A stretch of DNA of 64,000 nt from Candidatus Rokuibacteriota bacterium. GTDB lineage: Bacteria; Methylomirabilota; Methylomirabilia; Rokubacteriales; CSP1-6. The translations under genes were made by a program, and so were the position numbers. The notes beneath the pieces were generated by a model. It did not search any database. It saw nothing but the letters and a program-made list of their open reading frames with translations, and had not been told where the DNA came from. The stretch is from the NCBI GenBank assembly GCA_016200085.1, contig JACQFL010000028.1, positions 62,001-126,000 on the forward strand, given 5' to 3'. Below, in pieces: positions 5,275 through 59,588 of the stretch; within the stretch, counting starts at the first letter, position 1, and every line of letters begins with the position of its first letter.

Positions 5275-5574
5275 TCAGCGTTCCAGATAGAGATCCTCGC
5301 CCTCCACGATCACGGGCCAGCAGGCCAGCTTGACCGCCGGATTGTTGACGTTGGCGCCGGTCGTCACGTCCCAGCGCCAGGCATGCCAGGGGCAGATGAC
5401 CACGCGGCCCTCGAGATCGCCGTCCCCGAGCGGGCCGCCCCGATGGGGACACGTGTTGTCGATCGCGTAGAAGCGCCCCTCCACGTTGAAGAGCGCCACC
5501 GAGCCCTCGCCGGCCTCGATGACGCGGCCTTCACCCTCCGGCACGTCACTCACCGCCCCCAGCCTGATCCGCAT
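5275..5574 (-). CDS. Rieske (2Fe-2S) domain protein
   Basis: CPHRGGPLGDG...CPWHAWRWD; start at MRIRLGAV. Confidence 0.9.
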   Translation of the reverse strand: MRIRLGAVSDVPEGEGRVIEAGEGSVALFNVEGRFYAIDNTCPHRGGPLGDGDLEGRVVICPWHAWRWDVTTGANVNNPAVKLACWPVIVEGEDLYLER

Positions 5575-5685: not shown

Positions 5686-5832
5686 GGCGGGGCAGGCTGA
5701 GGGCGGGAGGGCTTCCGCGATCCGACTGACTGTGGTCTCGTAGGCCGTGTCCGCGCGCCGCGTGGCGGGCGCGGCGAGACCATCCCTACCCAACGGATCG
5801 CGGAAGCCCTCCCGCCCTCAGCCCGCCCCGCC
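5686..5832 (+). repeat. Structured inverted-repeat element copy 1: 39-nt arms (5686-5724 / 5794-5832) around 69-nt core (5725-5793)
   Basis: Arms complementary at 38/39 positions by eye; core matches copies 2 and 3. Confidence 0.85.
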
Positions 5833-5977
5833 TCGCTCGGCGTCCACCAGTCACGCGACGCTCGAGACGCCAGACCGATCCCGAACCTCTTCCCCCAAGG
5901 CGCTGGGGTTCCTTGGGAAGAATGAAACCTTTCCGCGTCGGTGCCGCGCCGATCGGTCTTCGCGGTTTGCCCCTCGT

Positions 5978-6134
5978 GAACCTCGCGCTCCGCGGGGCCG
6001 GGCCGGGGGGCCGCGATCCGTTCGGTACGGGTCGTCTCGCCGCGCGCGTCACGCGGCGCGCGGACACGACCTACGAGACCACAGTCGGTCGGATCGCGGC
6101 CCCCCCGGCCCGGCCCCGCGGAGAATCGGGGTTC
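5978..6134 (-). repeat. Structured inverted-repeat element copy 2 (core on minus strand): inner arms 5990-6020 / 6090-6121, core 6021-6089
   Basis: Arms complementary with a single 1-nt bulge; core reverse complement ~61/69 identical to copy 1 core. Confidence 0.85.
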
Positions 6135-59358: not shown

Positions 59359-59588
59359 GTTGGTGTGCTGAGTCTGAAGTTCGTCGTCACGTCCGACCGA
59401 GGTGGGGCGGGCTGGGGCCGGGGTCGGTTGAGATAAGCCGTGGAGTAGGCGTGGTCTCGCCGAAGACGATCACGATGCGAGGCGCACCGCTCGGTAACGA
59501 CAGTCAGTCGGCTTGTCCAACCGACCCCGGCCCCTGCCCGCCCCACCTCACGCCACGCGATGACGAACGTCGGACTCAGGACACTAAC
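59359..59588 (-). repeat. Structured inverted-repeat element copy 3 (core on minus strand): arms 59359-59440 / 59509-59588, core 59441-59508
   Basis: ~80-nt imperfect complementary arms; core ends match copies 1 and 2 (ACTGACTGT...CGGCGAGACCA..CCTAC). Confidence 0.85.

What the first reader, a model, noticed from the sequence alone, without database searches (positions are those of the whole stretch)
5686..6134. Paired hairpin elements with a conserved 69-nt core and copy-specific complementary arms
Seen directly: two adjacent elements in the Rieske/MBL divergent intergenic region. Copy 1 has 39-nt arms that match at 38/39. Copy 2 has ~31-nt arms with one bulge. Each encloses exactly 69 nt. 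The copy 1 core (ACTGACTGTGGTCTCGTAGGCCGTGTCCGCGCGCCGCGTGGCGGGCGCGGCGAGACCATCCCTACCCAA) and the reverse complement of the copy 2 core agree at about 61/69 positions by eye. The arm sequences differ much more between copies than they do within a copy. That pattern is expected if long base-pairing (RNA or single-stranded DNA) is under selection, or if arms are created by a copying mechanism. The core also holds an internal stem (GGTCTCG...CGAGACC). I recognise no described family with this architecture.
Basis: seen in the sequence. Interest (0 to 1): 0.82.

Follow-up and report, generated by a model that had tools for sequence, protein, structure and literature searches.

The report
Rokubacterial hairpin repeats with re-templated arms
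Soil bacteria of the group Rokubacteria carry dozens of copies of a small, apparently undescribed DNA repeat, found mostly just behind genes, that keeps a fixed middle sequence while its two long mirror-image flanks change completely from copy to copy yet stay complementary, probably because DNA replication copies one flank onto the other.

Summary
Copy 1 has 39-nt arms (38/39), copy 2 about 31-nt arms with one bulge; both enclose 69 nt and the cores agree at 61/69. A third copy lies at window 59399-59549. The pair belongs to a repeat family ("D") with about 40 copies in this genome. A sister family ("T", core motif GGCTGGGCTCCATC) has the same architecture and up to 44 motif copies per genome in 29 of 58 genomes of the same taxonomic family. 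The pattern scan that carried organism names returned Candidatus Rokubacteria plus two chance hits. No Rfam family matches and no paper was found.

Arms are about 96% Watson-Crick paired although arm sequences differ almost completely between copies. Between orthologous T copies, 57 stem pairs changed on both sides and stayed paired, and four of five inspected alignments show mirrored indels in both arms. G.U pairs are rarer than A.C mismatches. This fits re-templating of one arm from the other during replication, not selection on sense RNA.

Elements sit just downstream of stop codons in a preferred orientation, with TAG strongly over-represented. At the reported locus relatives have 52-90 nt and no hairpin where this genome has 616 nt with two. 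Best reading: a new family of non-autonomous interspersed palindromic repeats, formerly mobile; enzyme and cellular role unknown.

The parts
5686..5724 (+). Copy 1, left (G-rich) arm
   Evidence: pairs 38/39 with 5794-5832
5725..5793 (+). Copy 1, conserved core (family D, subtype A), sense orientation ACTGACTGTGG...CTACCCAA
5794..5832 (+). Copy 1, right (C-rich) arm
5988..6020 (-). Copy 2, arm on the Rieske side (arms are copy-specific; one bulged base between them)
6021..6089 (-). Copy 2, conserved core, inverted relative to copy 1; 61/69 identical
6090..6123 (-). Copy 2, arm on the MBL side
59363..59586 (-). Third copy in the window (subtype B): longer element whose outer inverted ends are shared with other subtype B copies; gapless inner arms 59399-59430 and 59518-59549, core about 59438-59511. 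TAG stop of the upstream gene at its left border (in core orientation)
5275..5574 (-). Flanking gene: Rieske [2Fe-2S] protein, divergent (context, not part of the repeat)
   Evidence: Pfam PF00355
6191..7564 (+). Flanking gene: metallo-beta-lactamase fold plus rhodanese domains (context, not part of the repeat)
   Evidence: Pfam PF00753 and PF00581

Best explanation
The two elements are members of a class of small, non-coding, interspersed palindromic repeats of Rokubacteria. SHOWN: (1) about 40 copies of family D in this genome and a sister family T in related genera, each built as G-rich arm (about 38 nt) + conserved 70-95 nt core + complementary C-rich arm; (2) arms diverge between copies but stay about 96% Watson-Crick paired within a copy; (3) at orthologous loci arms change by double substitutions and by mirrored indels; (4) copies lie mostly just behind stop codons, preferentially TAG, with a preferred orientation, sometimes as inverted pairs; (5) presence/absence at orthologous sites, recent dispersed copies (subtype B), and loss by deletion. 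INFERRED: the repeat spread as a non-autonomous mobile DNA element whose core (loop) and palindromic shape, not arm sequence, are what a protein recognises; insertion is directional next to TAG; the arms are kept complementary mainly by template switching during replication (a mutation in one arm is copied into the other), which lets the arm sequence drift while the hairpin survives. The mobilising enzyme and any benefit to the host are unknown.
For: Copies: D; T. Pairing: 1291/1341 arm positions WC in D, 4146/4341 in T; covariation 0.719 vs 0.10-0.17 slid. Orthologs: 57 double WC-to-WC changes, 64 single, 13 double non-WC over 16 pairs; mirrored indels in both arms of L246/L219, L250/L225, L240/L236, L200/L235. 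G.U 62 vs A.C 120 in all. Placement: left vs right stop 27:5 (D) and 70:25 (T), TAG 20/27 and 37/70 against 23% and 21% background. Mobility: subtype B copies 80-94% identical in unrelated flanks; L236 has a whole element that L240 lacks; the reported locus has 52-90 nt and no hairpin in four genomes of other genera. Core more conserved than the sequence just downstream at orthologous loci, 0.855 vs 0.63. Template switching as a cause of double and multibase stem changes: PMC8794818.
Against: No transposase or recombinase has been linked to the repeats, no autonomous parent was found and no clear target-site duplication is visible. Insertion and deletion cannot be told apart at most presence/absence sites. 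Many T loci are shared between species, so recent movement is rare and some selective retention is possible. Core conservation at orthologous loci suggests constraint that a purely selfish, immobile copy would not need. The arm-copying step rests on a few mirrored indels and on pattern, not on an observed event. The given pair is itself an exception to the behind-a-stop-codon rule.
Confidence: 0.68

Rival explanations
1. Functional RNA elements of the 3' untranslated region (terminators or mRNA 3'-end protectors): the hairpin is transcribed with the upstream gene and base pairing in the RNA is selected, so arms change by compensatory mutation.
For: Position just behind stop codons and preferred orientation; many orthologous copies retained across species, with core 0.855 identical against 0.63 downstream.
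Against: G.U is not favoured over A.C in the sense strand (51 vs 101 in T, 11 vs 19 in D); mirrored indels are hard to reach by independent mutation; only 5 of 119 T hairpins have a T-rich stretch after the right arm; only some tens of copies per genome; the TAG preference has no place in this model.
Confidence: 0.15
2. DNA-level structure under selection: a cruciform or single-strand hairpin is recognised by a host protein (chromosome organisation, replication or recombination), and selection alone keeps the arms Watson-Crick paired.
For: Strand-symmetric strict Watson-Crick pairing; conserved loop termini; constrained core.
Against: Selection alone does not easily give mirrored indels; families are patchy between genera and copy numbers vary from 0 to 44; position is tied to stop codons rather than spread through intergenic DNA.
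Confidence: 0.12
3. Conventional MITE: a DDE transposon derivative with terminal inverted repeats and target duplication (CTAG or TA).
For: Subtype B has outer inverted ends (about TAGTGTCCTGAGTC) and CTAG at both borders in two of five copies.
Against: Right borders are CTGG, CTCG and CCAA in the other three copies; fixed orientation relative to TAG is not expected from symmetric ends; arm sequence is not conserved between copies as a transposase site would be; no full-length element with these ends was found.
Confidence: 0.04
4. The elements inserted into the loops of palindromes that were already in the genome, so arms are target sequence.
For: Arms differ between copies while cores are alike.
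Against: No core-free hairpin of this length occurs in the window; recent subtype B copies at different loci share nearly the same arms; arms have a constant composition (58-59% G in the left arm).
Confidence: 0.01

Closest known systems
REP / BIME / REPIN elements (PMC3116915, PMC3733652)
   Same: Short interspersed extragenic palindromes, mostly behind genes and between tandem or convergent genes, often as inverted doublets; non-autonomous; GTAG-class REPs carry a GTAG tag, here many copies lie next to a TAG (GTAG or CTAG).
   Different: REPs have a conserved 20-40 bp stem; here the stem is free and the 70-95 nt loop is conserved. No RAYT in this genome or in the T-rich genus g9. TAG lies 0-40 nt from the stem and usually is the gene's own stop codon.
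Integron attC sites (PMC2727003; details beyond its abstract from own knowledge)
   Same: Hairpin sites behind a gene's stop codon, fixed orientation, arm sequence not conserved between copies; here the mismatch asymmetry (A.C above G.U on the sense strand) would fit a hairpin on the bottom strand.
   Different: attC has its conserved boxes at the base of the stem and lies in cassette arrays; here the conserved part is the loop and copies are scattered through the chromosome.
MITEs of bacteria (own knowledge; reviews such as PMC2229807)
   Same: Small, non-coding, dispersed, with inverted repeats; subtype B shows outer inverted ends.
   Different: In MITEs the terminal repeats are conserved between copies and a parent transposon shares them; neither holds here.
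Template-switch-maintained hairpins (PMC8794818)
   Same: Stems whose two sides change together without wobble intermediates, explained by copying of one side from the other.
   Different: Described there for RNA genes; here it would act on dispersed long DNA palindromes with 70-95 nt loops.
Repetitive hairpin-forming elements of sponge mitochondria (PMC2800124)
   Same: Lineage-specific invasions of intergenic regions by hairpin-forming repeats of diverse sequence.
   Different: Organelle genomes; no relation to bacterial stop codons, and no conserved 70-95 nt loop with free arms known to me.

Membership tests
REP/REPIN (RAYT-associated) | Stem sequence conserved between copies | tested here: not met
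   Arms of different D copies agree at 50% (shuffled 42%) against about 96% pairing within a copy; the core is the conserved part
REP/REPIN (RAYT-associated) | GTAG (or CGTC) tag at the foot of the palindrome | tested here: inconclusive
   TAG over-represented near the left foot, preceded by G or C, at variable distance and usually as the gene's stop codon
REP/REPIN (RAYT-associated) | Y1 transposase (RAYT, PF01797) in the genome | tested here: not met
   None in the own genome, 94.6% complete, nor in any of the ten g9 genomes that are rich in T elements
REP/REPIN (RAYT-associated) | Inverted doublets, extragenic, behind genes | tested here: met
MITE | Terminal inverted repeats conserved between copies | tested here: inconclusive
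   Only in five subtype B copies; arms of subtype A and of T are not conserved
MITE | Target site duplication | tested here: inconclusive
   CTAG at both borders in two of five subtype B copies; no exact junction elsewhere
MITE | Autonomous parent sharing the ends | tested here: not met
   no other site with these ends or core motif, except one isolated motif at C41:45957
Integron attC | Arm sequence free, structure conserved, behind a stop codon in fixed orientation | tested here: met
Integron attC | R/L core sites at the stem base and an integrase (IntI) in the genome | not tested
   No systematic search for R boxes or for IntI was made
Integron attC | Clustered gene cassettes | tested here: not met
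   40 D copies scattered over more than 20 contigs
Intrinsic (Rho-independent) terminator | Run of T directly after the stem | tested here: not met
   Only 5 of 119 T hairpins have 6 or more T in the 15 nt after the right arm
Described structured RNA (Rfam) | Match to a family model | tested here: not met
   no match
Template-switch-maintained palindrome | Paired changes and mirrored indels without wobble intermediates | tested here: met

The most novel reading that the evidence does not exclude
A new kind of small mobile DNA that inserts directionally next to TAG stop codons using an unidentified enzyme that reads a conserved loop on a folded strand, while the stem carries no sequence information and is rewritten continually by template switching: a genetic element inherited partly as a shape.
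Probability: 0.3. Interest if true: 0.85.

Novelty: new variant of a known kind. Interest (0 to 1): 0.72.

Why it matters
How stems keep their pairing - by compensatory mutation under selection or by template switching - is debated (PMC8794818). Here are hundreds of long stems, many at orthologous loci of several sequenced species, with double substitutions and mirrored indels and without wobble intermediates: a natural test set. It also adds an apparently undescribed class of bacterial palindromic repeat with reversed architecture (fixed loop, free arms), a stop-codon-linked placement, and no known mobilising enzyme. Practically, covariation in such elements should not be read as proof of a functional RNA.

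Tried and rejected
RAYT/IS200 mobilisation: no Y1 transposase in the own genome or in the T-rich g9 genomes. Autonomous parent with the same core or ends: none found. Conserved internal core helix: not supported in D; the internal pairs predicted in T are nearly invariant and so uninformative. Arms as pre-existing target palindromes: contradicted by subtype B. Sense-RNA selection: G.U not favoured. Intrinsic terminators: no T-tails. Plasmids and phages: no blastn match to the copy 1 core with inner arms. One viral-contig hit to the D pattern lies in a sequence with no hairpin of score 15 or more and was taken as chance. Hits of the copy 1 core region in relatives are its GC-rich middle only, i.e. 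chance; among those loci only one short-loop hairpin was found. D pattern in GTDB contigs: none, but records near the own genome may be left out there.

Full report
CHECK. Copy 1 arms pair at 38/39; copy 2 has a one-base bulge; each encloses 69 nt; the cores agree at 61/69 with every difference inside the core. A third copy lies at 59399-59549. A gapless hairpin scan of the whole window finds no other hairpin with arms of 18 nt or more and a loop up to 160 nt.

FAMILY D. In the window's genome (a Candidatus Rokubacteria genome, judged by the names attached to hits of the sister family T; 3.57 Mb, 94.6% complete) blastn with the copy 1 core and inner arms gives 28 places, a few of them partial or weak. 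The terminal motifs GACTGACTG...TACNCNACGG give 32 exact hits with 0 for the reversed pattern. 40 copies were compiled. The ends of the core are nearly fixed; interiors fall into subtypes A, B, C and others. None of 57 other genomes of the taxonomic family and no GTDB contig searched has the D pattern.

FAMILY T. Scanning stretches of relatives' contigs (34 of 20 kb) for hairpins showed the same architecture with another core. The motif GGCTGGGCTCCATC occurs in 29 of 58 genomes of the family, up to 44 times each and 12 times in the own genome, against at most 1 for the reversed motif; a few of those hits are chance hits in genes, without a hairpin. The longer T pattern is found in 23 of 58 genomes of the family and in 0 of 38 other genomes of the phylum. 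119 unique T hairpins were read.

ARMS. In D, 1291 of 1341 arm positions are Watson-Crick, with 11 G.U, 19 A.C and 20 other, while arms of different copies agree at 50% (42% for shuffled arms). In T: 4146 WC, 51 G.U, 101 A.C, 43 other. The covariation score on 24 D copies is 0.719, against 0.10-0.17 for slid partners, and no shuffle reaches it. A sense RNA under selection should tolerate G.U; G.U is instead rarer than A.C (combined p=2e-5). In rRNA, two-step compensations run mostly through G.U (78.5%; PMC8794818). Recent subtype B copies share their arms, so arms travel with the element and drift later.

ORTHOLOGS. Species of genus g9 share many T loci. Over 16 ortholog pairs, 57 stem positions changed on both sides and stayed Watson-Crick, 64 changed on one side (G.U 16, A.C 21, other 27) and 13 changed on both sides without pairing. 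Identity is 0.80-0.82 in arms, 0.855 in the core, and 0.63 just downstream. Four of five inspected alignments show an indel mirrored in both arms (L246/L219, L250/L225, L240/L236, L200/L235; my reading of the alignments). Independent matching indels are improbable; copying of one arm from the other explains them. This is the template-switch mechanism studied in microbes and proposed for RNA genes (PMC8794818).

PLACEMENT. With the core in sense orientation, the gene on its left usually points into the element. D: a left stop codon within 100 nt of the core in 27 cases, a right one in 5 (p=1e-4); left stops are TAG in 20/27 against 22/94 background (p=4e-6). T: 70 left against 25 right within 60 nt of the arms (p=4e-6), TAG 37/70 against 38/184 (p=1e-6), median stop-to-arm distance 9 nt. 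Gene ends come from my own codon-usage caller. T copies include orthologs, so those p values overstate independence; the D copies come from one genome. In five subtype B copies TAG is the left border of the shared sequence and the sequence before it is gene-specific. The pair in the finding is an exception: it lies between divergent genes.

MOBILITY. Subtype B: five copies 80-94% identical to the best conserved one over about 224 bp in unrelated surroundings. L236 (G066) has a whole extra element against L240 (G063) behind the same stop codon. At the reported locus, four genomes of other genera (L392, L393, L395, L403) keep the divergent Rieske/MBL pair with 52-90 nt and no hairpin, against 616 nt and two hairpins here. 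Copies are also lost by deletion (L279 vs L268). Inverted pairs and short tandem arrays recur. No mobilising gene was identified.

VERDICT. A real, apparently undescribed class of interspersed palindromic repeats of Rokubacteria. It resembles REP/BIME-type repeats in distribution but fails two of their defining features (conserved stem, RAYT). How the arms stay paired is best explained by template switching; what moved the elements, why TAG, and whether the host uses them are open.

Noticed in passing
L094 (G000:C52, just outside the right end of the subtype B element) and about 30 other places, e.g. G000:C11:22300-22335, C51:10791-10826, C17:60226-60261: A different dispersed GC-rich repeat (about 36 nt, CGCGCCGAGCGTTGGGGGG-like) is found many times in the own genome; found only because it lay inside the blast query.
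   Followed up: no
G000:C41:45957-45969 (L171): The only exact CCGACTGACTGTS motif that is not inside a detected hairpin element; possibly a decayed copy.
   Followed up: partly
arms of families D and T: Mismatches are asymmetric: A.C exceeds G.U (120 vs 62) on the strand that carries the upstream gene's sense, as if the opposite strand's hairpin mattered or G-to-A changes were more frequent. Unexplained.
   Followed up: partly
G000:C17:176153-176360 (L011, L019): Inverted duplication of an element with a truncated second core: all three arms are alike while the two core pieces differ, which again looks like arm homogenisation.
   Followed up: partly
L144:5897-6046 (G029:C68): 20-nt perfect inverted repeat TCTAGGGGTCAGGTCTTGCA between convergent genes, both ending in CTAG at its borders, 110-nt loop: perhaps another family that uses TAG stop codons.
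   Followed up: no
G000:C6:50940-51158, G000:C9:92366-92605, G064:C60:59919-60331: Head-to-tail tandem copies of the repeats (periods about 141, 164 and 181 nt), one array at a contig end.
   Followed up: no
L174 (G000:C40:53400-56400), around 1290-1400: Tandem array of a roughly 90-nt unit containing GAGCGGTGAAATTCSGGATCAGTGTGAGGGGAGC, unrelated to the hairpins.
   Followed up: no
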